A stretch of 64,000 nt of DNA from Nitrospinota bacterium (GCA_022562795.1 JADFOP010000003.1:25197-89196), one strand, 5' to 3'; positions 17,468-55,509 are shown, counted from the stretch's first letter. Translations and numbers: made by a program. The notes: generated by a model not told the origin, from the sequence alone.

Positions 17468-18880
17468 CTAGCAATCGTAGTAGAGGGCGAACTCTATCGG
17501 ATGGGGCCTGAGCCGCAGCTCATCGACCTCAACCGTTCGCTTGAAATCCAACCAGGTCTCGATGACGTCTTCGGTAAAGACGTCGCCCTTGAGGAGAAAC
17601 TCGTGGTTGGCCTCCAGGGCGTCGAGGGCCTCGTCGAGCGAGCCAGGGACGCTCGGCACTTTCGCAAGCTCCTCGGGGGGGAGCTCGTAGATGTCTTCGT
17701 CCATCGGCTCGCCCGGGTCCATTTTGTTTTGGATGCCGTCGAGCCCGGCCATGAGCATGGCGCTGAAGGCGAGGTAGCCGTTGCACGACGGGTCGGGAAA
17801 GCGCACCTCAATGCGCTTGGTCTTGGGATTGGGCGAGTACATGGGGATGCGCACACCCGTCGAGCGGTTTCGGCTCGAATAGGCGAGATTAACCGGGGCC
17901 TCGAAGCCCGGCACGAGCCGCTTGTAGCTGTTGGTCGTTGGGGCTACTAAGGCACACAGCGCCGGGGCGTGGTGGAGGATGCCCCCGATGTAGTAGAGGG
18001 CCATCTGGGAAAGCCCCCCGTAGAGGTCGCCGGCGAAGAGCGGCTCGCCGTCCTTCCAGATCGACTGGTGGACGTGCATGCCGGTCCCGTTGTCGTTCCA
18101 GATGGGCTTCGGCATGAAGGTGGCCGTCTTACCGTTTCGGAGGGCTACGTTTTTCACGATGAACTTGTACCACATGAGATTGTCGGCCATTTTCTTGAGC
18201 GAGTCGAACTTTATGTCGATCTCACCTTGGCCCGCCGTGCCCACCTCGTGGTGCTGCGCCTCTATATTCATGCCAACCGACTCCATCACCAGGCACATCT
18301 CCGTCCGGATATCTTGCAGCGTGTCAGTGGGCGAGAGGGGGAAATAGCCCTCTTTGTACTGAGGCTTGTAGCCGAGGTTGGGACCCTCCTCCCGACCCGT
18401 GTTCCAACGGCCCTCCACAGAGTCGATGTAATAAAACGCGTGCTGCTCTCTACAATCGAAGCGGATGTCGTCCAGGATGAAGAACTCCGCCTCTGGACCG
18501 AAGTAGGCAACATCGCCGATTCCGGATGCGACGAGGTATGCCTCGGCCTTCTGGGCTATGTTTCGAGGATCGCGGCTGTACTTCTCCCGGGTGATGGGGT
18601 CCACGATGTCGCATATCATCGACAAGGTCGGCTCTTTGGTGAAGGGGTCCATGACGGCCGTCGCTGGATCTGCCACGGCGAGCATGTCTGAGGCGTGAAT
18701 GGCCTGCCAGCCGCGGATGGACGAGCCGTCGAAACCGTAGCCCTCTTCAAATGCGTCCTCAGAGAGCTCGGAGATCGGAACCGAGAAGTGTTGCCAGAGG
18801 CCGGGGAAGTCCATGAATTTCAGGTCGACCATCTTGGCGCCGTTCTCTTTGGCAAAAGCAATAACCTCTTTCGGCGTCAT
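17468..18880 (-). CDS. glnA: glutamine synthetase type I
   Basis: A 470-residue GSI enzyme making glutamine from glutamate, ammonia and ATP. Motifs include DGSSIRGW, the metal-binding [10 protein letters not shown] and [13 protein letters not shown], and [10 protein letters not shown]. The adenylylation site Tyr398 in [10 protein letters not shown] marks the regulated GSI-beta type. I chose the ATG giving MTPKEV because GGAGGGG lies 8 bp upstream; the longer frame overlaps that site. It follows glnB by 58 bp and shares its sigma-54 promoter. Confidence 0.97.
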
Positions 18881-18938
18881 TCCTATCCCCTCCTTTTTCA
18901 TCTCTCACGTACTGATAAGGAAACAGCGTGGCTGAAAG

Positions 18939-19325
<387 letters not shown>

Positions 19326-19531: not shown

Positions 19532-19547
19532 AGCAAGAGTCGTGCCA
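19532..19547 (-). promoter_or_regulatory. sigma-54 promoter for glnB-glnA
   Basis: On the minus strand TGGCACGACTCTTGCT matches the sigma-54 consensus TGGCAC-N5-TTGCW at every fixed position. It lies about 255 bp upstream of the glnB start, giving an unusually long leader. Confidence 0.88.
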
Positions 19548-43185: not shown

Positions 43186-44496
43186 ATGCAGAGGCGGGAC
43201 ACATTAGGAAATCATTCTTCGGCCCGGAGAGCGTCCTTTCTAGCGTGGCGAGGCGACGAACGGGGGGCTGTTGCCGTTCTTGTAGCGGTGCTCCTGGCTG
43301 TTCTGATCGGTTTTGCAGGCCTCGTCATCGACCTTGGCCATCTGTTCGTCGTCCACTCCACGCTTCAAAACGTCGCCGACTCGGCCTCCCTAGCCGCCGC
43401 CTCAAGCCTGAGCTACGGCCCCGATGAGGCCAGAGGCCAGGCTCAGCTCCTAGCCCATAAGCACGCTGTAGACGGCACTCCAGTCGCCCTCGCTCTGGTG
43501 GACATCGAGCTTGGCACCTGGGATAAGGAGACCAAGACTTTCACCGTCTTGGAGCCAGCCCAAGAGGCAAACGCCAACAGTGTCCGGGTCATGGCTCAGC
43601 GCTCCCAAGACCGCAACAACCCCATATTTCTCATCTTCATGCCCTTGTTCGGGCACCAGGCATCGGACGTGAGAGCGATCTCCGTGGCGTACCAGGCGGG
43701 TTCGTGTATGGGGGGCATTATCGGCGGGAGACGGATAACCCTCAACAGCTCAAGTGTCACCGATAGCTACAATTCCGACTTCGGGCCGTACAGCCCCGCT
43801 ACAGCGAATCAAAATGGGGATGTCTGCAGCTGCGGAGACATCGAGCTCAACTCGTCGGCCGGCGTAAATGGCGATGCGGGGCCTGGCGATGGTCATGAGG
43901 TTATCCTGAATAGCTCCGCCTACGTCACAGGCTCCACTACCCCCGGGGGCTGCCCGGTATTACCCGACGTCGAGCTCGGTGACATCGCCACAAACAACGA
44001 CAACGGCAACATCCCGACAATGACGGACGACGGCAATGATCCTTTTGAGGATGGGCCTTACGATCTCGCACTTAATAGAGGCGACAGTATCACTTTGCCC
44101 GGTGGCCGGTACTACTTCAACTCGGTCGTGCTTAACAGCTCCTCGACGCTAAGCGTTGCGGGTCCGACCGTCATATACGTTACCGGGGAGTTCGCTGTGA
44201 ATGGTTCGGGCATCATGAATCCAGGCCTAAATCCGCAAGACCTCGTTGTTATGATCTCCTCCACCTTGGAGGTGCAACTTAACAGCAGCGTCGATTTCTA
44301 CGGCGTCATCTACGCGCCCAACGCGCGTGTCGTCAATAACAGCGGCGTCGAATTTTATGGGTCAATAATGGCAGATGAGGTCACCTTCAACAGTTCGGTC
44401 CAGTTCCATTACGACGAAGCGCTAAGCGATCTGGCGTTCCTCGACGGCGTGGAGATCGTCTTCAATAGCACTTTGAGCTCCACTCTCGTCCGGTAG
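43186..44496 (+). CDS. TadE/G-like pilus/surface protein with LNSS repeats
   Basis: A 436-residue protein. Residues 25-75 match the TadG/TadE-type N-terminus (DERGAVAVLVAVLLAVLIGFAGLVIDLGHLFVV, then ADSASLAAASSL), the class of membrane-anchored proteins exported by Tad/Flp systems. The C-terminal half (about 180-436) carries seven [LF]NS[ST] repeats in a beta-helix-like spacing (ITLNSSS, IELNSSA, VILNSSA, VVLNSSS, VQLNSSV, VTFNSSV, IVFNSTL). Two cysteines (CSCGD) lie at the repeat start. No Tad secretion genes are nearby. Own promoter and strong ribosome-binding site. Confidence 0.72.
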   Translation: MQRRDTLGNHSSARRASFLAWRGDERGAVAVLVAVLLAVLIGFAGLVIDLGHLFVVHSTLQNVADSASLAAASSLSYGPDEARGQAQLLAHKHAVDGTPVALALVDIELGTWDKETKTFTVLEPAQEANANSVRVMAQRSQDRNNPIFLIFMPLFGHQASDVRAISVAYQAGSCMGGIIGGRRITLNSSSVTDSYNSDFGPYSPATANQNGDVCSCGDIELNSSAGVNGDAGPGDGHEVILNSSAYVTGSTTPGGCPVLPDVELGDIATNNDNGNIPTMTDDGNDPFEDGPYDLALNRGDSITLPGGRYYFNSVVLNSSSTLSVAGPTVIYVTGEFAVNGSGIMNPGLNPQDLVVMISSTLEVQLNSSVDFYGVIYAPNARVVNNSGVEFYGSIMADEVTFNSSVQFHYDEALSDLAFLDGVEIVFNSTLSSTLVR

Positions 44497-44551: not shown

Positions 44552-45424
44552 ATGCCAACTAATGATTCGACAGCCAATGAGCTAACTGGAAGCCTGATCC
44601 GCATCCGATCTTCTATGGAGGGGCTCCATACAGCCGAACGGAGGGTGGCCGAGGCCGTCCTATCCAACCCCGAATCGATTCTGACGAGCTCTGTCACTGA
44701 AGTCGCAAACAGCGCCGGCGCGAGCGAGGCCACCGTTGTCCGTTTCTGCCGGTCTTTGGGCTACAAAGGCTACCAGGACTTTAAAATTTCTCTCGCCAGA
44801 GACCTTGTGTCTCCCATCAAGAGCCTCCACGAGGAGTTGGAAGAAGGCGATGAGCCGCCGGATGTGGCGGCCAAGGTCTTCCGATCCCACATCCAGGCCC
44901 TGGAGGAGACCCTCGCCGTGCTCGACCCCGCCCATTTCGCCAAAGCCGTGGAGCTCCTCGTCGGCGCTCGGCAAATCTTCTTTATCGGGGTTGGAACCTC
45001 GGCGCCCAACATCCTCGATGCACAGAACAAGTTCTTCCGGCTGGGCTATGCGACCTCTGCGCAGAGCGACAGCCACCTGCAGGCCATGCAGGCGGCGCTG
45101 CTGGAGCCGGATGACGTGGTGGTGGCCATCTCCCACTCGGGACAGACCCGCGACACCATCGAGACGGTCCAGGTCGCTAAGGCCAGAGGGGCGAGCGCCA
45201 TTGCCATCACCAACGCGGCCCTCTCGCCGCTGGCAAAGCTCTGTGACATCACCCTGGTGACCGCCTCTCGCGAAACTCGGTTCCGTATGGAGGCCCTCGC
45301 CAGCCGTATAGCTCAGACCACTATTATCAACGCCCTCTTCATGGCCTGCAGCCTGGCAGATATGGAGCGCACCTTACTGCTTCGCGAGGTCATCGAAGAG
45401 GCAGTTGTCGGCAAGCAGTACTGA
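44552..45424 (+). CDS. RpiR/MurR-family regulator (HTH + SIS domain)
   Basis: A 290-residue regulator with an N-terminal HTH (EVANSAGASEATVVRFCRSLGYKGYQDFK) and a C-terminal SIS phosphosugar-binding domain (about 125-260: ARQIFFIGVGTSAPNILDAQNKFFRLG, then VVVAISHSGQTRDTIETV). RpiR-type proteins sense sugar phosphates. It is the first gene of the microcompartment block, with GAGGAGG upstream, which suggests the compartment handles a phosphorylated sugar or sugar acid. Confidence 0.9.
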   Translation: MPTNDSTANELTGSLIRIRSSMEGLHTAERRVAEAVLSNPESILTSSVTEVANSAGASEATVVRFCRSLGYKGYQDFKISLARDLVSPIKSLHEELEEGDEPPDVAAKVFRSHIQALEETLAVLDPAHFAKAVELLVGARQIFFIGVGTSAPNILDAQNKFFRLGYATSAQSDSHLQAMQAALLEPDDVVVAISHSGQTRDTIETVQVAKARGASAIAITNAALSPLAKLCDITLVTASRETRFRMEALASRIAQTTIINALFMACSLADMERTLLLREVIEEAVVGKQY

Positions 45425-45500
45425 GGAGGGAACGGGAGAAGAGGGTGGACGATAGAGCGACGCTCGCTCTTTCACTAGCCCCAGATTGGGAGTTCAACCG

Positions 45501-46160
45501 ATGATGATCGAACAGACCACGAATGGCATAGACCTTCGCACCTTTATCGTTCTGGATAACCTGCAGTACCAGCTCGCCTCCTTTATTGGCACGACCGCCC
45601 GTGGGTTTTTGCCCATCGGGGGGATGGCGAGCCTATTCGTCGAGATCGCCCCAGGGATCGCCATCAACCGGCTGACCGACGTGGCCCTCAAGGCCACCAA
45701 CGTCAAGCCCGCCATGCAGATCGTGGAGCGTGCCTACGGGCTTCTGGAGGTTCACTCCGAAAGCCAGGCCGACGTACGCCAGGCGGGCCAGGCCATCCTC
45801 GATGACTTGGGCCTCCAGGAAAGAAACCGCCGCAAGCCCCGCACCGTCTCGACCCAGATCATCCGCAACGTAGACGACTATCAGGCCCAACTCATCAACC
45901 GGGAGCGCCACGGTCAGATGCTCATACCTGGCCAGACCCTTTACATCCTGGAGGTGGAGCCAGCGGGCTACGCTGCGCTGGCCGCCAACGAGGCTGAGAA
46001 GGCAAGCAACGTCAACCTGGTAGACGTGAGGCCCTTCGGGGCCTTTGGGCGACTCTACCTGGGCGGTGAGGAGCGCGACGTTGTGGTCGGCAGCGAGGCG
46101 GCCCTTCGGTCCCTGGAGATGGTGGATGGCCGCGAGGTCGCCGAGGGGACTGAGAGATGA
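45501..46160 (+). CDS. tandem-domain BMC shell protein (BMC-T)
   Basis: A 219-residue shell protein containing two BMC-type units: residues about 42-105 ([27 protein letters not shown]) and 146-210 ([25 protein letters not shown]). BMC-T trimers are pseudo-hexagonal tiles, often with gated pores. The N-terminal 40 residues are an extra extension. The sequence is divergent from the second BMC-T at 49.6 kb. The start is the first of two adjacent ATGs, with GGGAG upstream. Confidence 0.75.
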
Positions 46161-46240
46161 GCCGAAGAAGAAAAGGAAAAAATGGATCGCCGGCCAAGCG
46201 AACCCGCGATTTCAATAAAGGAGGGGGAGGAGGTGAGGTC

Positions 46241-47413
46241 ATGAACGAACTCGAGCAGACCGAAATCCTGGAACGCTCTCGGACTATGACACCCGATTTG
46301 GCATCCGTGTCATCCAGAGTAGCATCCCCATCGGAGTCGTATCAATTACCCATCGGCTCGACCATGACCGCGAAGGATTTGCTCATGGAGCCTGAAATTG
46401 GCGGCACCACAAAGCGGGGCGGGCGGAACGGAGCAAGCGTACGCGAAGATTGGATCGCCCTGGAGCAGGTCGTGGTGACCAGCCCCAAGATGAAGCAGGT
46501 ATTCAAGCTTGCCAGAACCCTCGGCCGTGCCGACCGGGCGACGGTGCTTATTACCGGCGAGACGGGCACTGGCAAAGAGGTGATAGCCAGGACCATTCAT
46601 CTTATGAGCCCCCGGCTCGACCAGCCCATGGTAGTGGTCAACTGCGGGGCCATCCCGAAGGAACTCATGGAGGCCGAGCTACTGGGCTACGCGAAGGGGG
46701 CCTTCACGGGGGCGGCCACGGGCGGCAACAAGGGCAAGGTGGAGTTGGCGCATAAGGGCACCCTCCTTTTAGATGAGATTGCCGAGCTGCCTCATGGAGC
46801 CCAGACTATCTTGTTGCGTATTCTGGACGGCCAGCCCTTCTACCCGGTGGGTTCCAACCGGGAGGTTAGAGCCGACGTACGGGTCATTGCCGCTACGAAC
46901 CGAGACCTTGAAGCCGCCGTGTCCGAAGGCTCCTTCCGCGAGGACCTTTTCTACCGGCTGAACGTGGCCCATATGCATCTGCCGCCGCTTAGGGAGCGGG
47001 CCGATGATATTTTGCCCCTGGCCAAAAGCTTCCTGAACGAGTTCAACCAGCTATACGGCAAGGCATTTCGGGAGATCACCCAGCAGGGGGCTGCTCGTCT
47101 GCTTTCATACCCCTGGAAGGGGAACGTCCGGGAGATAAAAAACGCCATCGAGCGGGTTGTGGTTTACGAAGATGACACAAAGGTAAGGGCCGAGCACTTA
47201 ACTTTTCTGGAACCCGGCCCGGCAGAAACGACCAACGGGGCCTCGGCATTCACTCTGCCGCGCGAGGGCGTTGATATTGAGAGCGTCTTCAGAAGCCTCA
47301 TCGTTCAGGCCCTCGATAGAACCGAAGACAATCAGTCAGAGGCCGCCCGCTTGCTGGGCATCTCGCTGCCCACGCTCCGATACCGAATGGCGAAATACGG
47401 TCTGAAAAACTAA
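46241..47413 (+). CDS. sigma-54-dependent transcriptional activator
   Basis: A 390-residue AAA+ activator with Walker A GETGTGKE (106-113), the sigma-54-contact loop GAFTGA (153-158), Walker B LLLDEI (175-180), and a C-terminal Fis-type HTH (about 360-385: NQSEAARLLGISLPTLRYRM). The N-terminal 75 residues have no recognisable GAF, PAS or receiver domain. The start is the ATG preceded by AAAGGAGG; 28 codons of open frame precede it. It sits inside the BMC operon and presumably activates a sigma-54 promoter there, though none is evident in the gaps. Confidence 0.93.
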   Translation: MNELEQTEILERSRTMTPDLASVSSRVASPSESYQLPIGSTMTAKDLLMEPEIGGTTKRGGRNGASVREDWIALEQVVVTSPKMKQVFKLARTLGRADRATVLITGETGTGKEVIARTIHLMSPRLDQPMVVVNCGAIPKELMEAELLGYAKGAFTGAATGGNKGKVELAHKGTLLLDEIAELPHGAQTILLRILDGQPFYPVGSNREVRADVRVIAATNRDLEAAVSEGSFREDLFYRLNVAHMHLPPLRERADDILPLAKSFLNEFNQLYGKAFREITQQGAARLLSYPWKGNVREIKNAIERVVVYEDDTKVRAEHLTFLEPGPAETTNGASAFTLPREGVDIESVFRSLIVQALDRTEDNQSEAARLLGISLPTLRYRMAKYGLKN

Positions 47414-47538
47414 GAGGGAGCAAGGGGTATGACGTGGTGCTCGGCAGTGGGGTGGCCTGAATATAAACCGATGGGTAGCAAGGAACGCCGGCCAATCTCG
47501 CCGGCAATTTCAAGGACCAATAGAGAGGAGGTAAAACC

Positions 47539-47844
<306 letters not shown>

Positions 47845-47852
47845 GGCAGCCC

Positions 47853-48152
47853 ATGCTTATCGGCCGCATTGTAGGCACGGTCGTGGCCACCCAGAAGGAG
47901 CCGCGACTTGAAGGCCTCAAGTTACAAGTGGTCAAGCGGGTGGAAATCGAAGGCAGCCTCTCGGAGACCTTCGTGGTGGCGGTCGACGCCGTGGGGGCAG
48001 GTCAAGGTGAAACAGTCCTCTACGCAACCGGCAGCGCCGCCCGCCAGACCCCCCTGACTGATGGACGACCCGTCGATGCGGTGGTCATGGCCATCGTCGA
48101 TACCTGGGACGTGGACGGACGGGTCGTCTATGACAAGCAGAAGGAAGGGTAA
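47853..48152 (+). CDS. BMC-P pentameric vertex protein (EutN/CcmL)
   Basis: A 99-residue EutN/CcmL protein (MLIGRIVGTVVATQKEPRLEG, then VAVDAVGAGQGETVLYATGSAARQT, then PVDAVVMAIVD) that caps shell vertices. It is the first of three BMC-P genes in this operon, closely packed between BMC-H and the aldehyde dehydrogenase. Confidence 0.93.
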   Translation: MLIGRIVGTVVATQKEPRLEGLKLQVVKRVEIEGSLSETFVVAVDAVGAGQGETVLYATGSAARQTPLTDGRPVDAVVMAIVDTWDVDGRVVYDKQKEG

Positions 48153-48163
48153 GGGAGATAGCC

Positions 48164-49594
48164 ATGCAGATGTCAGAGGCTCAGGTGGCCTCCATTGTTG
48201 AGAAGGTGCTTCAGAGGATGGAGAGCCCCCCTAGGGCCGAGCCCGCTCCTGCCTCGGCCGGAACGGAAGGCCCCGGAATTTTCGCCACCCTCGACGAGGC
48301 AGTCTCGGCTGCTGAGAAGTCCCAGCGGGACCTCGTGGCTCTCGGCCTCGCGGTTCGGGTAGCCATGGTGGAGTCGATCCGCCTGGTCTGCCTCGAGCAC
48401 CTCGAGAGCCTCGCCCGGATGGCCGTTGAGGAGACGGGATTCGGCCGCCTCGAGGACAAGGTAGTCAAGAACCGCCTTGTGACCGAGCTCACACCGGGGC
48501 CCGAGTTCTTAACAACTGAGGCGTTTAGCGACGACTCCGGCCTCACGATTCAGGAGCGGGCCCCATACGGGGTATTGAGCGCTATCACCCCTTCGACGAA
48601 CCCCTCTTCCACCATCATAAACAACGCAATCGCCATGGTATCGGCCGGCAACGCGGTCGTCTTCAACCCCCATCCGGGGGCGGTGGGCGTCTCGCTGCGA
48701 ACCATTGCGCTGATGAACGAGGCTGCCGTCTCGGCCGGAGGTCCCCCGACCTGCTTTACTTCCCCGGCAGAGCCATCGGTCGAGACGGCCCAGTCTCTCA
48801 TGCGCCACCCCAAGGTGGCCCTCAACGTGGTAACCGGCGGGCAGGCCGTCGTAGAGGAAGCCCGCCGGGCCGGAAAGCGGGTCATCGGCGCCGGGCCCGG
48901 CAACCCCCCCATCGTGGTGGACGAGACGGCGGAGATCGACCGGGCCGCCCGCGACATCGTGGCCGGGGCGAGCTTTGACAATAACGTCGTCTGCACAGAC
49001 GAGAAGGAACTCTTTGTCGTGGCCTCCGTGGCCGATGAGCTCAAGGACCGGATGAAGGCCCACGGAGCGTACGAGCTCAGCCCTCACCAGACCGAGCGGC
49101 TCTCTAGGCTCGTGATCGAGCGGGAGGCCCCGACGCGGCAGTCCTCGGCCATTAACCGGGCCTTGGTGGGCAAGGACGCCCAGGTGATCCTGAGCGAGAT
49201 CGGCGTGGATGCGCCCGAGACGGTGCGGCTTATTCTCTGCGAAACCGACCGGGACCACCCCTTCGTCTGGACTGAGCTCCTCATGCCCATCCTGCCCCTT
49301 GTGCGGGTGGAAGATGTGGAGGAGGCCATCGGCCTGGCCGTCCAGGCCGAACACGGCTTTGGCCACACGGCAGTGATTCACTCGACCAACGTGGGCGCCA
49401 TGGACAAGATGGCCAGGGATATCAAGACCGCCCTCTTCGTCAAGAACGGCCCGAGCTATGCCGGCCTAGGTGGGGGCGGGGCGGGATACACGAGCTTTAC
49501 CATCGCCACACAGACCGGCGAAGGGCTCACCACCCCCTACACCTTCACCCGCGAGCGTCGATGCACGCTTGTGGGTTCGTTTCGAATCGTATGA
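48164..49594 (+). CDS. CoA-acylating aldehyde dehydrogenase (EutE/PduP-like)
   Basis: A 476-residue enzyme oxidising an aldehyde to its acyl-CoA with NAD+. The catalytic Cys277 lies in SFDNNVVCTDEKE, and the NAD-binding and core motifs YGVLSAITPSTNPSSTIINNA and GAGPGNPPIVVDETA are intact. The N-terminus (about 1-20: SEAQVASIVEKVLQRME) is an amphipathic helix followed by a Pro/Ala-rich linker, typical of an encapsulation peptide. The stop overlaps the next BMC-T start. Its substrate aldehyde presumably comes from the class II aldolase. Confidence 0.95.
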   Translation: MQMSEAQVASIVEKVLQRMESPPRAEPAPASAGTEGPGIFATLDEAVSAAEKSQRDLVALGLAVRVAMVESIRLVCLEHLESLARMAVEETGFGRLEDKVVKNRLVTELTPGPEFLTTEAFSDDSGLTIQERAPYGVLSAITPSTNPSSTIINNAIAMVSAGNAVVFNPHPGAVGVSLRTIALMNEAAVSAGGPPTCFTSPAEPSVETAQSLMRHPKVALNVVTGGQAVVEEARRAGKRVIGAGPGNPPIVVDETAEIDRAARDIVAGASFDNNVVCTDEKELFVVASVADELKDRMKAHGAYELSPHQTERLSRLVIEREAPTRQSSAINRALVGKDAQVILSEIGVDAPETVRLILCETDRDHPFVWTELLMPILPLVRVEDVEEAIGLAVQAEHGFGHTAVIHSTNVGAMDKMARDIKTALFVKNGPSYAGLGGGGAGYTSFTIATQTGEGLTTPYTFTRERRCTLVGSFRIV

Positions 49595-50253
49595 CGCCCG
49601 CGCGCCCGACACCTCGACCCATCTACCCAGGCCAGGACTTCCGTCCTGTCCTGACGCGCCTGCCTGAGCCCTACCTGGTGGAGGAGTGGGCCGTGGCGGC
49701 CGTGGAGCTCAACCGGATCGCCCCTGGATTCACCGCGTGTGACGCCATGCTGAAGGCCGCTCCGGTAACGCTCATAGAGGCCGCGCCCCTCTGCCCGGGC
49801 AAGTACCTGATCATTGTCGGCGGCGAGGTGGCGAGCGTGGAGAGCGCGTACGAGGCGGGCCTCGCCGTTGGCGGGACGGCCGTCATCGATCGGCTCCTGC
49901 TCGCCAAGGCCGATCGGCAGGTCTTTCCGGCCCTCGTGGGCGAGTCCAAACGGTCGGTGACCTTCACCGAGGGCGACAGCTTGGGGGTCATTGAGACCTG
50001 CTCGGCCGCCTCGGCCATCCTCGCCGCCGACGCCGCCTGCAAGGCCGCCGGAGTGCGTCTCTACGAATGCCACATCGCCCAGGGCCTCGGCGGAAAGGGC
50101 TATCTTTACTTCTTCGGAGAGCTCAGTGCCGTGGAGGCGAGCGTGGAAGCAGGAGGGGCCATCGTATCACCGGATGGACTCCTCGTCGGCACCGAGGTCA
50201 TACCCGACCCGGATGCAATTCTCGTTGAGCGTCTTATGAGAGAGGTTCCCTAA
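49591..50253 (+). CDS. tandem-domain BMC shell protein (BMC-T), second copy
   Basis: A 220-residue BMC-T with two BMC domains: about 35-105 (AAVELNRIAPGFTACDAMLKAAPV) and 128-200 (SLGVIETCSAASAILAADAACKAAGV). The ATGA overlap with the aldehyde dehydrogenase stop favours this start over the longer frame beginning at 49561. It differs clearly from the BMC-T at 45.5 kb, so the two probably form different trimer types. Confidence 0.9.
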   Translation: MTPARPTPRPIYPGQDFRPVLTRLPEPYLVEEWAVAAVELNRIAPGFTACDAMLKAAPVTLIEAAPLCPGKYLIIVGGEVASVESAYEAGLAVGGTAVIDRLLLAKADRQVFPALVGESKRSVTFTEGDSLGVIETCSAASAILAADAACKAAGVRLYECHIAQGLGGKGYLYFFGELSAVEASVEAGGAIVSPDGLLVGTEVIPDPDAILVERLMREVP

Positions 50254-50256
50254 GCG

Positions 50257-50613
50257 ATGTTCCTCGCTGATGTTCTCGGCAGAGTCGTGGCCACCCGCCG
50301 ATACGATAAAACTATAGGCTACCGGCTACTTTGGGTTCAGCCTTTGGACCACCACGGGGAGGCGGCAGGCCAGCCCGAGGTGGCACTCGACACCGTCTTG
50401 AGCGGAAGCGGCGACCGGGTCATCTGCGTAATCGGTCGGGAGGCCTCCATGGCCATGGACCTCCCCGGCCGGTTCAGCCCCGTGGACCTGGCTATTGTTG
50501 GTATCGTCGACCGGGTAGACGTGGATAATGGTGAGCCGGACAACGGGAATGCCAACGGTAATTCCAATGGACATGCCAACGGTAATTCCAATGGGAATGC
50601 CAATGGGCATTAA
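50257..50613 (+). CDS. BMC-P vertex protein with Asn/Gly-rich repeat tail
   Basis: A 118-residue EutN/CcmL protein. Residues 1-90 are the pentamer domain (MFLADVLGRVVATRRYDKTIG, then VDLAIVGIVDRVDVD). The C-terminal tail of about 25 residues is a run of NG-x-[AS] units (NGNANGNSNGHANGNSNG), encoded by 24-bp tandem DNA repeats. Such a tail is unusual for this family and may be surface exposed at the vertices. Its neighbours on both sides are shell genes. Confidence 0.9.
   Translation: MFLADVLGRVVATRRYDKTIGYRLLWVQPLDHHGEAAGQPEVALDTVLSGSGDRVICVIGREASMAMDLPGRFSPVDLAIVGIVDRVDVDNGEPDNGNANGNSNGHANGNSNGNANGH
50551..50610. repeat. 24-bp coding tandem repeat in the BMC-P gene
   Basis: Copies at 50551-50574 and 50575-50598 differ at only two positions and a 12-bp partial copy follows. 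The unit encodes NANGNSNG-type residues. Repeats like this change length by slippage without breaking the frame. Confidence 0.85.
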
Positions 50614-50637
50614 TCGAGGAAGAGGGTTCTCAAGCTG

Positions 50638-50910
50638 ATGCTCCTCGCTCAGGTAGTCGGTACGGTGAACTCAACGGTCAAGCAACCTGCATTGATCGGA
50701 CACACCGTTCTTTGCGTGGAGCCCCGCGACGAGGCCTGGCAGTCGACGGGAGAACCCTCCTTCCTCGCGATCGATTTCGCACTGGCCGGGGTGGGCGACC
50801 GGGTGCTGGTGGTGCGCGAGGGCGGGGCGAGCCGTCTCACCATGGGGGTGGAAGACGCCCCCGTCCACGCCGTCGTCGTAGGCATCGTGGATGCCGTCGA
50901 AGGGAGATAG
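50638..50910 (+). CDS. BMC-P vertex protein, third copy
   Basis: A 90-residue EutN/CcmL protein (MLLAQVVGTVNSTVKQPALIG, then IDFALAGVGDRVLVVREGGASR, then PVHAVVVGIVDAVEGR), near the minimal length of the family and without the repeat tail of its upstream neighbour. Three distinct BMC-P genes in one operon imply at least three vertex types or mixed pentamers. Confidence 0.92.
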   Translation: MLLAQVVGTVNSTVKQPALIGHTVLCVEPRDEAWQSTGEPSFLAIDFALAGVGDRVLVVREGGASRLTMGVEDAPVHAVVVGIVDAVEGR

Positions 50911-50917
50911 TGAGGTT

Positions 50918-51724
50918 ATGGGAATGGCCATCGCCGCACCCTGGCAGACCGAGAAAATGCTCCGAGAGGAAATGTGCCGCATAGGACGGCTCATCTATGA
51001 GCGGGGCTTCATCGCCGCCACCGACGGCAACCTCTCGGTGCGTCTCGACGACGAACGGGTCCTCTGCACTCCGTCTGGCCTCTGCAAGGGATTTCTCGAG
51101 CCGTCAGACCTGGTGGTGGTGGACTTTGATTTGAAGCTGCTGAAGGGGGTCGGTCAGGCTAGCACTGAGATACTTATGCACTTGGGGGCATACCGGGCCC
51201 GGCCCGAAGTTCGCGCCGTCATTCACGCTCACCCGCCCACGGCGATCGCCTTCTCCATCGGGGGGCGGTCTGAGGCTCTTGCCGGGGCTTTCTTGCCGGA
51301 GGTCGTCTACACCCTTGGGGCCATCCCGACGGCCCGCTACGCGACCCCCGGCACGGCTGATGTCCCGGCGAGCCTCGAGCCCTACTGGGCCAAGTGCGAC
51401 GCCATCATCCTCGACCGACACGGCTCCATCACGGTGGGAGAGACCCTGTTGGAGGCCTACCTGAAGCTCGACAAGGTGGAGCACGCCGCCAAGGTGACCT
51501 TCATGGCTACGCTGCTGGGAACGCCCCGGCCCCTTCCGGCCAAGGAGGTTGAAAAGCTCGCCCTTCAGGGAGCGGCCAGGGGCTACCCGACCGAGTGCTC
51601 GGCCTGCGCCGACGGCGGGGTCTGCGATCGGGAGGCGCCCGAGGGTGATCGCGGCCTATCCGATGCGGTCGAGGAGTCTATCGTCGAAGAGGTGCTTCGG
51701 GCTGTCCGGAAGGCGGCAGGGTAA
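50918..51724 (+). CDS. class II aldolase with C-terminal encapsulation peptide
   Basis: A 268-residue zinc aldolase of the fuculose/rhamnulose-phosphate type. Phosphate-binding loop TDGNLSVR, catalytic Glu84, zinc ligands His103, His105 (VIHAHPP) and His168 (LDRHGS). The C-terminus has a Cys-containing linker (Cys227, Cys230, Cys236) and then an amphipathic helix (about 246-266: LSDAVEESIVEEVLRAVRKA) that looks like a cargo-targeting peptide. GAGG lies near the chosen ATG; the frame opens 9 codons earlier within the BMC-P gene. It would generate an aldehyde for the neighbouring dehydrogenase. Confidence 0.92.
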   Translation: MGMAIAAPWQTEKMLREEMCRIGRLIYERGFIAATDGNLSVRLDDERVLCTPSGLCKGFLEPSDLVVVDFDLKLLKGVGQASTEILMHLGAYRARPEVRAVIHAHPPTAIAFSIGGRSEALAGAFLPEVVYTLGAIPTARYATPGTADVPASLEPYWAKCDAIILDRHGSITVGETLLEAYLKLDKVEHAAKVTFMATLLGTPRPLPAKEVEKLALQGAARGYPTECSACADGGVCDREAPEGDRGLSDAVEESIVEEVLRAVRKAAG

Positions 51725-51775: not shown

Positions 51776-54700
51776 CTATCCCCCCTCCTCCATTAGCTTG
51801 ACGACCTGGCCCTCCAGGACCGATTCACCCCGTTGATTCACGATCTCAATAGAGAGCGGCACGATGGGAGGCCCCTGGCCTTTCTTCGAGCGGCGAATGT
51901 CTGACGGCTCAGGAGCAGTCACTGTCACGGTGAGGTCGTCGCCCGCCTCGATGGGGGCACCGAAGGCCGAGACCTCGGCGCTTAGAAGGAGGTGGCCCGG
52001 TGCGCTCTCGGCTGAGGCCATGGCCATGGTTCCGATAGCGAGCAGGGCGCTCAGCTGGTGCAGGTCGAGCGCCCCGAAGAGGGCTCTGGTCGCACGGACG
52101 ATCTCGTCGGTGATGGGTTTGGTTATGCTTTGGACGCGGGGGCTTGCCGGGTTGGTGAAGTCGTGAATGACGTCGGGCACTGATGGGGCGACGTCGTCGG
52201 CCCACGCCCTCACCCAGGGAAGCTCCGCTGGGGCCGGGACAACCGGCTCTGGGCGGGCCTGGCGCCGGATGGTCGTCTCGCCCTCGCATACCACCGTCCC
52301 CGCCTGGTTGAGGGCCTTTAGAGCCAGGCGGGCTCGGCCGTCGTCGGAGACCTCCTCGACGTAGGCCACGGAGGTCAGCGTGTCGTCGAAAGCCACCGGG
52401 GCGCGGAAGCGCACCGTTAGGGTTTCTTCCGTATCTCCGGGCAGCAGCCGCCCCAGGCTCGCGAGCATAAGAGAGGTGGTGAGCAGCCCGTGGGCCACGA
52501 GCCCGCCGAAGCGGGAGGCATCGGCGTAGGCCTTATCGAGATGGTAGCGGTTCCGGTCGCCCGAGGTCTTTGCGAAGGTCTGAACCATCCATTCCCTAAC
52601 CGGGGTTGCGTAGCCGACCAGTGTCTGGCCGGGGAAGACGGCTGTGCCCAGCTGCTCCGTGCCGCCGGGCCTCAGGGCGAGCAGGAGCCGCTCGCGGGCG
52701 GTGACGTAGCGCTCGGCCTCATCGTCGGTGAGGTGGTCGGCCTTGAAAGCCCTCTCAAGCTGGCCGTAGTATATACGCGCCGTGGCGGCGTCCACGAGCT
52801 CAGGCTGGTTGGTCACCGGGTCGTTGTAGGCCACCGCCCCGAGCTTCCGCTCCTGGTCGGCCGTGGCGTATAGCTCGAGTATCTCCAGCGCCCTCTCGAC
52901 CGAGTTGGTCCACCGGGAAAGGAACGCGGCCCCTTCAGGGGTTGAGAGGTCCTCCGGGGGGGTCCCGGCCCTGGGCGGGTTCATGATGGCGGCCACGGCG
53001 TCGGCCTGCTCAGGGGTGACGAGCTTGCCGTGAAAGCCGAGGTTGGCAACGAAAGAAGCCTCGTCCTCGACCTTTTCCGGCTCACTCGGCCCGTCGATTG
53101 CGTCGATGTCGGCCTGTGCAGTGGCGGCGACCAGCGCCGAGTGGTAATAGAGGTAGCCCTTGGTTGCGGGGTCAGCGAGGTCCTCTTTAGGCATGTCTTG
53201 GGCGAGATCGAGGATGAGCCACATCATGCGGCGGCTCGCCTCTGCGATGGCCTCTGAGTCCCGCTCCACGCTTTCGGGCTTCGTAAGCCTCACCCCTAGG
53301 GCCAGGGCGCCCACCTCCAGGCCCACCTCGCGCTCGGCTTCGGTAAGCAGCCCTGCGGCCTCGCGGACCGTGGCGACATCGTCCACCTCAGGGAGGACGA
53401 TGCCGTGGATGGTCTCGCCGAGGGCTCCAAGGAGGCTGGCCAGCCCGGATGCGGCCCCCTCGCCGCGTAGGTCGGCCTGGCAGGCTACCACCTTTCCTCC
53501 TCCCTCCGATTTCAAGGCCTCGGCCAAAGCCTCGTGGGTGGCTTCTTGTCCGGGCGCGAGGAGCCCATCGACGTCGCAGATGATCATGTCGGCCCTAGAA
53601 GCTACGGCCACTCGGACGGATTCGAGGTCGTCGCCTTTGGCTTCGACCACCGAGCGGGCGAGGACGACGGGCCGGGGGATGAAGACGGTGGGGGGCAAGA
53701 TGGGCCGGGCCTCTGCGGCAAGCCGCTTGAGCTCCTCGAGGTCGAAGGGCTCGATGGGCTCGTATTCCAGCCGCCTTCGGACCGGCGACGGGAAGTGCGA
53801 GGCGTGTCGGGCGATGCCTTCGATGTGGGCCGGATGGACGCTCCATTTGCGGTGGATGCCGATGGAGATGGCCTTAGTGGTGTCCTGCTCCGTATCGTCA
53901 GCGTTGAGCTTTACCGTGATACCCGTGCCGGCGACCTTCCCGGTTGCGCGGGCCGCCTCGACGATGGTCAGCAGCGGGAAGCGCATGTAGGTGTACTGCT
54001 GCTGCTGGACGATGCTTCGGCCCCCCGTGGCCGCCGTGTAGTCGACGACACCCAGGTTTATCTCCTCAACTTCGGGCGCCGCGGCGAGTATCTGGCGGGC
54101 CTGGAGAATGGCCCCCGGCAGCTCGGTAAGGACGAAGACCTTGTGGCGAGCGGGCCGCCAGCCCCGCTCGGCCTGGATGGCTCTGAGTATTCTGACTGCC
54201 ACGAGCACGTCGTCCGCATCCTTGACCTTCGGCAGATAGATGCCGTCGATTAAGTCCCCCACCTCCCGGATCACATGGATGTAGTCGCCTGCCGACCAAC
54301 TCGTCCGAAGGTTGTTGGGCCTCACAAGGATCATCTGGTCGGGGGGAAGGCGGAGGTCTGGCTTGAGGGCGAGGCCGCCTTCGGTTGGCTCGAAGGCTTC
54401 GGCCAGCTGGTCGGCCCGGCCCTCGGGCATGGCGTGCTCCTGGAGGAAGGCTACGTCCTCAGGGGTCAAGACCTGGCCGCGGAAGGCCCTAATCAGCAGT
54501 GCGATGACCGGGCGGGCGATCTCCTTGCGGGTGGTCGCTACGGCATCTTCGATGTCTAGCAGAAGAATGTGAGCATCCGATTGGGCCGCCTTGTGCAAGA
54601 AGTACCAGTTGTCGCCTGGGAAGACGTGCTCGATGGTCCGGGGGCGGAGCTCCCAGCTCAAACGATCTATGACCGCCTCTCGGCTCGCCTTAGGGTCGAG

Positions 54701-54799
54701 GGCCTGCAAGGCCTCCAACCGCTCGGCGACCTCTGCCTCAGCTTCGGCGTCGTGGCCACCGTACGCCTCAACAATCTCGCTCCAGGCTTGATCCGTCAT
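51776..54799 (-). CDS. CitE-CitE-MaoC-hotdog fusion protein (malyl-CoA lyase/hydratase-like)
   Basis: A 1007-residue four-domain protein. Domain 1 (about 55-360) is a HpcH/HpaI-CitE lyase (LLLDIEDAV, VRPNNLRTSW, INLGVVDYTAATGG, then KWSVHPAHIEGIARHA). Domain 2 (about 375-650) is a second, more degenerate CitE unit (MIICDVDGLLAPGQE, GIVLPEVDDVATV, GFHGKLVTPEQAD). Domain 3 (about 690-860) is a MaoC (R)-hydratase with the motif SGDRNRYHLDKAYADASRFGG and AHGLL. Domain 4 (about 870-1007) is another hotdog fold without the motif. It suggests coupled malyl/methylmalyl-CoA cleavage and enoyl-CoA hydration. The start has AAGGA upstream; 104 longer-frame codons look non-coding. It converges on the BMC operon. 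Confidence 0.83.
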   Translation of the reverse strand: MTDQAWSEIVEAYGGHDAEAEAEVAERLEALQALDPKASREAVIDRLSWELRPRTIEHVFPGDNWYFLHKAAQSDAHILLLDIEDAVATTRKEIARPVIALLIRAFRGQVLTPEDVAFLQEHAMPEGRADQLAEAFEPTEGGLALKPDLRLPPDQMILVRPNNLRTSWSAGDYIHVIREVGDLIDGIYLPKVKDADDVLVAVRILRAIQAERGWRPARHKVFVLTELPGAILQARQILAAAPEVEEINLGVVDYTAATGGRSIVQQQQYTYMRFPLLTIVEAARATGKVAGTGITVKLNADDTEQDTTKAISIGIHRKWSVHPAHIEGIARHASHFPSPVRRRLEYEPIEPFDLEELKRLAAEARPILPPTVFIPRPVVLARSVVEAKGDDLESVRVAVASRADMIICDVDGLLAPGQEATHEALAEALKSEGGGKVVACQADLRGEGAASGLASLLGALGETIHGIVLPEVDDVATVREAAGLLTEAEREVGLEVGALALGVRLTKPESVERDSEAIAEASRRMMWLILDLAQDMPKEDLADPATKGYLYYHSALVAATAQADIDAIDGPSEPEKVEDEASFVANLGFHGKLVTPEQADAVAAIMNPPRAGTPPEDLSTPEGAAFLSRWTNSVERALEILELYATADQERKLGAVAYNDPVTNQPELVDAATARIYYGQLERAFKADHLTDDEAERYVTARERLLLALRPGGTEQLGTAVFPGQTLVGYATPVREWMVQTFAKTSGDRNRYHLDKAYADASRFGGLVAHGLLTTSLMLASLGRLLPGDTEETLTVRFRAPVAFDDTLTSVAYVEEVSDDGRARLALKALNQAGTVVCEGETTIRRQARPEPVVPAPAELPWVRAWADDVAPSVPDVIHDFTNPASPRVQSITKPITDEIVRATRALFGALDLHQLSALLAIGTMAMASAESAPGHLLLSAEVSAFGAPIEAGDDLTVTVTAPEPSDIRRSKKGQGPPIVPLSIEIVNQRGESVLEGQVVKLMEEGG

Positions 54800-55038
54800 C
54801 ACAGTTCCTTCGGGTAACACGTCATGGGGATACCCAATCGGCCTGTGCCGTCGTGCGCTACGCTCGGTGAAAAGGTCTCGAAGCGGTGACGCGGTTGCCC
54901 CGGCTTTACTGTAACCGAGGTTTTCAGGTGGTTGACCCAAATTATAACCCGAATCCGAGGCGCTTTCAAGCGCTAGAGCCTTGACGGACCCCCAAGGCGT
55001 CCGTATAGTGGGCCTTTGCCACATCGAGGAGGTCGTGC

Positions 55039-55509
55039 ATGGAGCGTGGGGCATTGAGGTTTTGGCGGTGGGGCGCTGTCGCCCTGTTTGCTCTCGGACT
55101 GCTAATACCATTCCCCTCTGCGGCAGCCGACCTCTCGAAGGAAGAGGCGGTTAAGAAAGTCATCGAGAAGGTTGTTCTGCCGAGCTCCAATCGAGAGACC
55201 CTCCGGGCGCATTTTTGGCCCCATCCCCTCCGTCCTGGTGATGTGATAACCGTATTCAGACCTGATGGCGAGCGCTGGCCCATCAAAGAGCCGACATGGT
55301 TCTTCTGGATCGACGACCTGCCCGAGGCTCTCTTCGGCCACCCCGCACGTTTTGTCTACGTCGATGTTGCGACGGGGGCCATTACCGTTCAACGTGCGGA
55401 TTCCTGGCCGGCCCTGAACGGCGAGACCTTGTGGGGATTTGCCGAGGAGCGAGAGGACCCACGGTTCGTTATCTATCCGCTTAAGCGCCCTGGGGGTCCA
55501 GGGAAGTGA
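55039..55509 (+). CDS. secreted protein of unknown function
   Basis: A 156-residue protein with a signal peptide (WGAVALFALGLLIPFPSAAA, cleaved near residue 30). The mature part has a helical start (SKEEAVKKVIEKVVLP) and several Trp/Pro-rich strands (PTWFFWIDDLPEALFGHPARFVYVDVATG). No known domain recognised. It overlaps the next gene by 4 bp (GTGA), so it is probably a partner of the caspase-like protein. Confidence 0.65.
   Translation: MERGALRFWRWGAVALFALGLLIPFPSAAADLSKEEAVKKVIEKVVLPSSNRETLRAHFWPHPLRPGDVITVFRPDGERWPIKEPTWFFWIDDLPEALFGHPARFVYVDVATGAITVQRADSWPALNGETLWGFAEEREDPRFVIYPLKRPGGPGK

What the first reader, a model, noticed from the sequence alone, without database searches (positions are those of the whole stretch)
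44552..51724. Microcompartment operon of an unfamiliar type: class II aldolase plus CoA-acylating aldehyde dehydrogenase, two BMC-T, one BMC-H, three BMC-P
All genes are on one strand with overlaps. Unlike Pdu/Eut loci there is no B12 diol/ethanolamine enzyme or alcohol dehydrogenase. Unlike the PVM-type sugar compartments I know of, there is no PduL-like phosphotransacylase here, and regulation is by an RpiR-SIS regulator plus a sigma-54 activator. The chemistry inferred is sugar-phosphate cleavage to an aldehyde, then acyl-CoA. Without a local phosphotransacylase, CoA recycling must occur elsewhere.
Basis: partly seen in the sequence, partly recalled or inferred. Interest (0 to 1): 0.8.

Follow-up and report, generated by a model that had tools for sequence, protein, structure and literature searches.

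The report
HO-type aldolase microcompartment, divergent variant
The operon encodes a protein-shelled bacterial organelle that probably splits a sugar phosphate and turns the resulting toxic aldehyde into acyl-CoA; its layout matches a catalogued type (the Haliangium "HO" type, subtype II) whose function is still unknown, so it is a distinct variant of a known kind and not a new kind.

Summary
44552-51724 encodes, on one strand, RpiR-SIS, a CcmP-like BMC-T, a sigma-54 activator, BMC-H, BMC-P, acylating ALDH, a PduT-like BMC-T, two more BMC-P and a class II aldolase. It is the only place in this 97%-complete genome with BMC-domain genes, and the genome has no PduL. "Unfamiliar type" is not supported. 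The order T-H-P-ALDH-T recurs in all 20 myxobacterial loci read. One such genome carries the remaining P-P-aldolase as a satellite, as Sutter et al. 2021 describe for HO type I; here the two halves are fused, as they describe for type II. BMC-H is about 80% identical to HO-5815. Two features, shared with one genome of the same class, make it a divergent variant. First, the second BMC-T has the pore cysteine that holds PduT's [4Fe-4S] cluster; other HO-order loci have Ser, Thr, His, Asp or Glu. Second, its aldolase is not of the HO-satellite clade (AU p = 0.015). Both enzymes carry encapsulation-peptide-like helices. Likely chemistry: ketose-1-phosphate to DHAP plus a short aldehyde, then acyl-CoA. 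No DeoC, and glycerol kinase as the only clear FGGY kinase, disfavour the DNA-salvage and canonical fucose/rhamnose readings. Substrate unknown.

The parts
44552..45424 (+). RpiR-family HTH + SIS regulator
   Evidence: Pfam HTH_6 and SIS; 60% identical gene starts the same-class locus L097
45486..46160 (+). BMC-T, double-layer type (BMC-Tdp), CcmP / HO-5816-like; start TTG 45486 or ATG 45501
   Evidence: NCBIfam CcmP 313 bits; PDB CcmP 276 bits, HO-5816 260 bits
46157..47413 (+). sigma-54 activator without recognised sensor domain (AAA+ and Fis HTH); likely start ATG 46241
   Evidence: Pfam Sigma54_activat, HTH_8; absent from L097
47539..47844 (+). BMC-H
   Evidence: Pfam BMC; best natural PDB match HO-5815 (5djb/5v74), about 80% identical over 93 residues
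47853..48152 (+). BMC-P 1, nearest to the pentamer of the HO shell
   Evidence: Pfam EutN_CcmL; best PDB match is the HO shell pentamer 5v74_A1
48164..49594 (+). CoA-acylating aldehyde dehydrogenase (EutE/PduP family) with N-terminal encapsulation-peptide-like helix
   Evidence: NCBIfam NF011927 638.7 bits over cut-off 403; PDB aldehyde dehydrogenases 5jfl, 4c3s
48164..48226 (+). N-terminal encapsulation-peptide-like segment MQMSEAQVASIVEKVLQRMES
   Evidence: similar N-termini in most related BMC ALDHs; hydrophobic moment 0.45, 6% of shuffles as high (weak)
49591..50253 (+). BMC-T, single-layer, PduT-like
   Evidence: Pfam BMC, two stretches; PDB PduT-family 3nwg, 3pac
49792..49794 (+). cysteine codon (LCPGKY) at the PduT [4Fe-4S] ligand position
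   Evidence: aligned with ICPGKF of 3pac; PduT chains 3n79, 3vcd, 4nwn have Ser there; survey of residues
50257..50613 (+). BMC-P 2, with Asn/Gly-rich C-terminal tail
   Evidence: Pfam EutN_CcmL
50638..50910 (+). BMC-P 3
   Evidence: Pfam EutN_CcmL
50918..51724 (+). class II (FucA/YgbL-family) aldolase; catalytic Glu and metal-ligand His residues conserved
   Evidence: Pfam Aldolase_II; invariant E84, H103, H105, H168; AlphaFold model matches YgbL, FucA and B. thuringiensis 6btd/6btg folds
51596..51625 (+). cysteine-containing linker of the aldolase (C227, C230, C236)
   Evidence: Cys-containing linkers also in Eisenbacteria, Ruminiclostridium and GRM5-like BMC aldolases; absent in HO-satellite aldolases
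51662..51718 (+). C-terminal encapsulation-peptide-like helix of the aldolase
   Evidence: low-confidence linker 222-247 then helix 249-267 in the model; equivalents in related aldolases

Best explanation
This is a catabolic bacterial microcompartment built on the HO (Haliangium) plan in its one-locus form (type II): a shell of one BMC-H, two BMC-T and three BMC-P around a class II aldolase and an acylating aldehyde dehydrogenase, both targeted inside by terminal helices. A ketose-1-phosphate enters (probably through the CcmP-like double-layer pore), the aldolase cleaves it to dihydroxyacetone phosphate plus a short aldehyde, and the dehydrogenase traps the aldehyde as acyl-CoA. There is no PduL and no local alcohol dehydrogenase, so CoA and NAD+ are not recycled by the usual internal pair: acyl-CoA or CoA must exchange with the cytosol (Pta, or assimilation by the ethylmalonyl-CoA route, key genes of which are present), and some electrons may leave through a [4Fe-4S] cluster held by the PduT-type cysteine in the second BMC-T. 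RpiR-SIS senses the sugar phosphate. Shown: gene content and order, absence of PduL and DeoC by homology search, presence of Pta, MtnA, crotonyl-CoA carboxylase/reductase and RpoN, targeting-helix pattern, conserved catalytic residues, the cysteine. Inferred: reaction, substrate class, pore traffic, Fe-S occupancy, electron export, regulation.
For: Gene order T-H-P-ALDH-T(-P-P-aldolase) shared with myxobacterial HO-like loci: all 20 read have T-H-P-ALDH-T, and the type I satellite P-P-aldolase is seen in G041. BMC-H about 80% identical to HO-5815; BMC-P1 best matches the HO pentamer. Same-class genome has the identical set and order minus the sigma-54 gene. HO definition and type I/II satellite statement. 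Terminal targeting-like helices. Catalytic residues. No PduL, Pta present. Cysteine. Crotonyl-CoA carboxylase/reductase and mutase on C28; HpcH/MaoC protein beside the operon.
Against: The aldolase is not in the HO-satellite aldolase clade (AU p = 0.015, long branches); ALDH grouping with myxobacterial HO is borderline (p = 0.0525); BMC-Tdp falls outside the myxobacterial HO clade. Sutter's supplement with per-type gene lists could not be read, so another catalogued type with a CcmP-like BMC-T (MIC3) is not excluded. No expression, imaging or biochemistry.
Confidence: 0.65

Rival explanations
1. It is a fucose/rhamnose compartment of the PVM or PVM-like kind: L-fuculose/L-rhamnulose-1-phosphate cleaved to DHAP and lactaldehyde.
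For: PVM and GRM5 use a homologous class II aldolase; structural matches to FucA; the Eisenbacteria aldolase/PduL/PduS loci are among the closest ALDH relatives.
Against: The only over-cut-off FGGY kinase hit in the genome is glycerol kinase, so the usual fuculokinase/rhamnulokinase is missing; no PduL, no lactate/malate-type dehydrogenase, no DeoR regulator and no acetate kinase in the operon, unlike PVM; BMC-Tdp and gene order are HO-like.
Confidence: 0.12
2. Its substrate is 5-deoxyribulose-1-phosphate (or methylthioribulose-1-phosphate) from 5'-deoxyadenosine or MTA, giving DHAP plus acetaldehyde (or methylthioacetaldehyde): a compartmentalised DHAP shunt. (A substrate-specific form of the best explanation.)
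For: Genome and the BMC-bearing same-class genome both carry MtnA well above its cut-off, whose product is such a ketose-1-phosphate; the BMC-less same-genus genome shows none. The model matches B. thuringiensis 5-deoxyribose-pathway aldolase 6btd/6btg (pathway PMC6079011, abstract). No FGGY sugar kinase is needed.
Against: MtnA sits in a housekeeping neighbourhood (YggS-ProC-YggT-DivIVA-like genes, read by eye), not with the BMC; three genomes are no statistic and the same-genus genome is 85% complete; fold matches do not separate substrates (YgbL scores best); the other methionine-salvage genes were not searched.
Confidence: 0.2
3. DNA/deoxyribose salvage as proposed for HO and SPU (DeoC aldolase with targeting peptide elsewhere in the genome).
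For: Sutter et al. propose it for HO; HO-like shell order also occurs in DeoC+RpiB loci.
Against: No DeoC-family (PF01791) match in this genome, although 13 of 14 control genomes ring; the locus carries its own targeted class II aldolase.
Confidence: 0.05
4. It is a separate catalogued or uncatalogued type (for example MIC3-like, or a fusion of HO shell genes with the PduS/PduT aldolase lineage), not HO.
For: Cys-type PduT-like BMC-T, Cys-containing aldolase linker, and trees placing window and L097 outside the myxobacterial HO clades.
Against: Gene order, BMC-Tdp type, BMC-H, BMC-P1 and the P-P-aldolase block all match the HO plan; the trees place the window lineage deep but not firmly elsewhere (ALDH with Eisenbacteria loci neither shown nor rejected, p = 0.47).
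Confidence: 0.25

Closest known systems
HO-type BMC (Haliangium ochraceum), type II (Sutter et al. 2021, PMC8217296; MIC in Axen et al. 2014, PMC4207490)
   Same: BMC-Tdp, one BMC-H, BMC-P, ALDH, second BMC-T in this order; BMC-P triplet; [quoted passage not shown] no PTAC/AlcDH in the locus; BMC-H about 80% identical to HO-5815.
   Different: Second BMC-T has the PduT Fe-S cysteine (other HO-order loci have Ser/Thr/His/Asp/Glu); aldolase from a different clade with a Cys-containing linker; RpiR regulator present, and a sigma-54 activator inserted; a lineage outside the myxobacterial HO clade.
Aldolase loci of Candidatus Eisenbacteria and similar (L021, L024, L041, L058; resemble Axen's SPU-like/PVM-like)
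   Same: ALDH, Cys-type PduT-like BMC-T, BMC-P2, BMC-P3, then class II aldolase with Cys-containing linker and C-terminal targeting-like helix.
   Different: They have PduL, PduS and two BMC-H and no BMC-Tdp hit.
PVM / GRM5 (fucose/rhamnose)
   Same: Class II aldolase plus acylating ALDH; BMC-P genes outnumber BMC-H in PVM.
   Different: PVM/GRM5 carry a DeoR regulator and an alcohol/lactate-type dehydrogenase, PVM an acetate kinase, GRM5 a PduS homolog; none found in this operon.
SPU with HO-like shell order (L047, L052, L062, L074)
   Same: Shell order T-H-P-ALDH-T-P-P.
   Different: DeoC aldolase and RpiB in place of class II aldolase.

Membership tests
HO-type BMC | Main locus order BMC-Tdp, BMC-H, BMC-P, ALDH, BMC-Ts | tested here: met
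   Same order as 20 of 20 myxobacterial loci read
HO-type BMC | BMC-P triplet | tested here: met
   Three EutN_CcmL genes; the clade membership of each in Sutter's BMC-P tree was not tested
HO-type BMC | CcmP- or CsoS1D-like BMC-Tdp | tested here: met
   NCBIfam CcmP 313 bits; HO-5816 260 bits
HO-type BMC | Type II: two BMC-P plus aldolase in the main locus | tested here: met
   50257-51724; type I satellite form seen in G041 as L113
HO-type BMC | ALDH of the HO clade (near SPU5/SPU7) | tested here: inconclusive
   Outside the myxobacterial HO clade; holding it there p = 0.0525; with Eisenbacteria loci p = 0.47
HO-type BMC | Aldolase of the HO-satellite clade (my criterion, not one of Sutter's) | tested here: not met
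   AU p = 0.0154, long branches present
HO-type BMC | Match to Sutter Supplementary Data 2 gene list | not testable with these tools
PVM / PVM-like | Class II aldolase signature enzyme | tested here: met
PVM / PVM-like | PduL, DeoR regulator, lactate/malate-type dehydrogenase, acetate kinase | tested here: not met
   PduL absent genome-wide; none of the others among the operon's ten genes; not searched elsewhere in the genome
SPU | DeoC (PF01791) and RpiB in the locus | tested here: not met
   No PF01791 match in the genome; neither family in the operon
ACI | Class II aldolase with C-terminal targeting peptide plus hydroxyacid dehydrogenase, ALDH on a satellite | tested here: not met
   ALDH is in the locus; no hydroxyacid dehydrogenase in it
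PDU/EUT/GRM | B12-dependent or glycyl-radical signature enzyme | tested here: not met
   None in the operon

The most novel reading that the evidence does not exclude
A distinct HO-plan subtype of an under-sampled bacterial class in which the shell carries a natural [4Fe-4S] pore (the property others engineered into a BMC-T by a pore Ser-to-Cys change), so that electrons from the enclosed ALDH leave through the shell without PduS, no PduL is needed because acyl-CoA is handed to the ethylmalonyl-CoA pathway, and the substrate is a 5-deoxypentulose-1-phosphate from 5'-deoxyadenosine.
Probability: 0.1. Interest if true: 0.6.

Novelty: new variant of a known kind. Interest (0 to 1): 0.35.

Why it matters
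The HO shell is the main structural model of BMC shells, yet the function of HO compartments is described as enigmatic (PMC8217296). A type II locus that carries its own targeted class II aldolase, in a small genome without DeoC and with glycerol kinase as its only clear FGGY kinase, narrows the candidate chemistry and gives a compact aldolase/ALDH pair to assay. The naturally Cys-bearing BMC-T on an HO-plan shell is a possible native counterpart to the engineered Fe-S shell protein.

Tried and rejected
Sigma-54 promoter scan: nothing near consensus on the + strand upstream of the operon's genes; one bare GG-N10-GC at 47443 in the sigma-54/BMC-H gap, expected by chance. No tRNA or Rfam family in the window. 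An early quick ALDH tree grouped the window with Eisenbacteria loci (97 SH-aLRT); the careful tree did not keep this, so it is not claimed. An early BMC-T tree put the window on the PduT side; with L097 added it moved to the border, so its placement is unresolved and only the cysteine itself is claimed. The same-genus genome lacks BMC genes, but at 85% completeness and 780 contigs this is not evidence of loss. The Cys-containing aldolase linker as a metal site: no test possible, left as an observation. DNA-salvage and canonical fucose/rhamnose readings disfavoured. A first pattern-based read of the pore residue and an early alignment misread some loci; the alignment replaces both.

Full report
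Observation. In order: RpiR-SIS (44552-45424), CcmP-like BMC-T (45486-46160), sigma-54 activator (ORF 46157-47413, likely start 46241), BMC-H (47539-47844), BMC-P (47853-48152), acylating ALDH of the EutE/PduP family (48164-49594), PduT-like BMC-T (49591-50253), BMC-P (50257-50613), BMC-P (50638-50910) and class II aldolase (50918-51724). Nothing about this is chance: the ALDH scores 638.7 bits against a 403-bit cut-off, BMC-H 104 bits against 24.5. The BMC-domain matches of the genome (2.15 Mb, 97.1% complete) all lie here.

What it is. The closest solved relatives are mostly HO shell proteins: BMC-H is about 80% identical to HO-5815 (counted from the printed alignment), BMC-P1's best match is the HO shell pentamer, and the first BMC-T matches CcmP and HO-5816 about equally. 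I compared gene order in 80 loci found through the ALDH and in 20 myxobacterial loci found through HO-5815. All 20 myxobacterial loci have T-H-P-ALDH-T in this order; a BMC-H close to HO-5815 occurs in 144 of 377 genomes of that phylum. In one myxobacterial genome (G041) the block BMC-P, BMC-P, class II aldolase lies on another contig (L113). Sutter et al. [quoted passage not shown] The window is therefore an HO plan of type II. A Spirochaetaceae locus (L054) has the same order including the aldolase, and G002, of the same class as the window's genome, has the same set and order without the sigma-54 gene. L161 and L164 are looser cases, with the aldolase near the locus but not directly adjoining, or on the other strand.

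How it differs. (1) The second BMC-T has Cys in an LCPGKY motif aligned to ICPGKF of the PduT-like structure 3pac; chains 3n79, 3vcd and 4nwn have Ser there. In PduT this residue from each subunit holds a [4Fe-4S] cluster in the pore (PMC6325248). In the alignment survey the HO-order loci have Ser, Thr, His, Asp or Glu; only the window and G002 among them have Cys. Cys is the rule in loci with a PduS hit (17 of 17) and also occurs in SPU-like loci of Bacteroidota without a PduS hit, so PduS is not strictly required for it. (2) The aldolase groups away from the HO-satellite aldolases (AU p = 0.0154), though branches are long. (3) The BMC-Tdp of window and G002 lies outside the myxobacterial HO clade, and the ALDH forms its own pair with G002 (98/94), with placement in HO borderline (p = 0.0525) and with the Eisenbacteria aldolase loci neither shown nor rejected (p = 0.47). 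I read this as a deep, separate lineage of the HO plan, not as a proven hybrid.

Cargo. Both enzymes carry the usual targeting architecture. The ALDH begins MQMSEAQVASIVEKVLQRM, matching the N-termini of most related BMC ALDHs. The aldolase ends in a low-confidence linker (222-247) and a helix (249-267) in the AlphaFold model (mean pLDDT 72.9), and homologous BMC aldolases end likewise. Amphipathicity alone is only weakly above shuffles. Catalytic Glu and the metal-binding His residues are invariant (roles assigned from FucA by my knowledge of that enzyme). Foldseek places the model with YgbL, FucA and the B. thuringiensis 5-deoxyribose-pathway aldolase, which does not settle the substrate.

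Metabolic context. No PduL. A Pta-type phosphate acetyltransferase above its cut-off lies on C16 beside a glycerate 2-kinase-like gene. No DeoC-family match. The only over-cut-off FGGY hit is glycerol kinase by sequence reading, so the usual fuculokinase/rhamnulokinase route is not apparent. MtnA is strong, in a housekeeping neighbourhood. Crotonyl-CoA carboxylase/reductase (564 bits, cut-off 378.55) and a methylmalonyl-CoA-mutase-family subunit on C28 suggest an ethylmalonyl-CoA pathway; the 1111-residue HpcH/HpaI plus MaoC protein convergent with the operon could be its mesaconyl-CoA hydratase/malyl-CoA lyase step. If so, acyl-CoA made in the compartment could be assimilated directly, and an internal phosphotransacylase would be dispensable. 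This is inference.

Regulation. RpiR-SIS is shared with G002. The sigma-54 activator is not, and G002 also shows no RpoN while the window's genome has one. No near-consensus -24/-12 site lies on the + strand upstream of the operon's genes. Transcription as one unit is plausible but untested.

Verdict. It is a new variant of a known, functionally unsolved kind. Limits: single draft genome (84 contigs); Sutter's supplement not readable; the genomes of the genome search are unnamed, so the host's phylum is not stated and H. ochraceum itself was compared only through its solved shell proteins.

Noticed in passing
51776-55111 (-): 1111-residue ORF with HpcH/HpaI (CitE-like) and MaoC domains, convergent with the operon; possibly a fused malyl-CoA lyase / mesaconyl-CoA hydratase of an ethylmalonyl-CoA pathway. 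No match above the threshold in the two nearest genomes.
   Followed up: partly
19532-19547 (-): Exact sigma-54 consensus TGGCACGACTCTTGCT upstream of ORFs that look like glnB and glnA (18939-19277, 17468-18901), suggesting sigma-54 is in use in this organism.
   Followed up: no
L177 (G000:C28): Crotonyl-CoA carboxylase/reductase, acyl-CoA dehydrogenase and mutase genes next to electron-transfer-flavoprotein-like ORFs.
   Followed up: partly
L098 (G000:C16): Pta-type phosphate acetyltransferase directly downstream of a glycerate 2-kinase-like gene.
   Followed up: partly
50257-50613 (+): BMC-P2 ends in an Asn/Gly-rich repeat tail (NGNANGNSNGHANGNSNGNANGH), absent from the G002 homologue.
   Followed up: no
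L021, L024, L041, L058: Aldolase metabolosomes with PduL, PduS, Cys-type PduT, two BMC-H and class II aldolase in Eisenbacteria and unnamed bacteria; which catalogued type they belong to was not settled.
   Followed up: partly
43186-44496 (+): Tad-like protein (Pfam Tad and DUF7305) with recurrent NSS motifs, immediately upstream of rpiR on the same strand.
   Followed up: no
G001: The only other genome of the genus found shows no BMC domain, no MtnA and a DeoC-family gene; 85% complete, 780 contigs, so not conclusive.
   Followed up: partly
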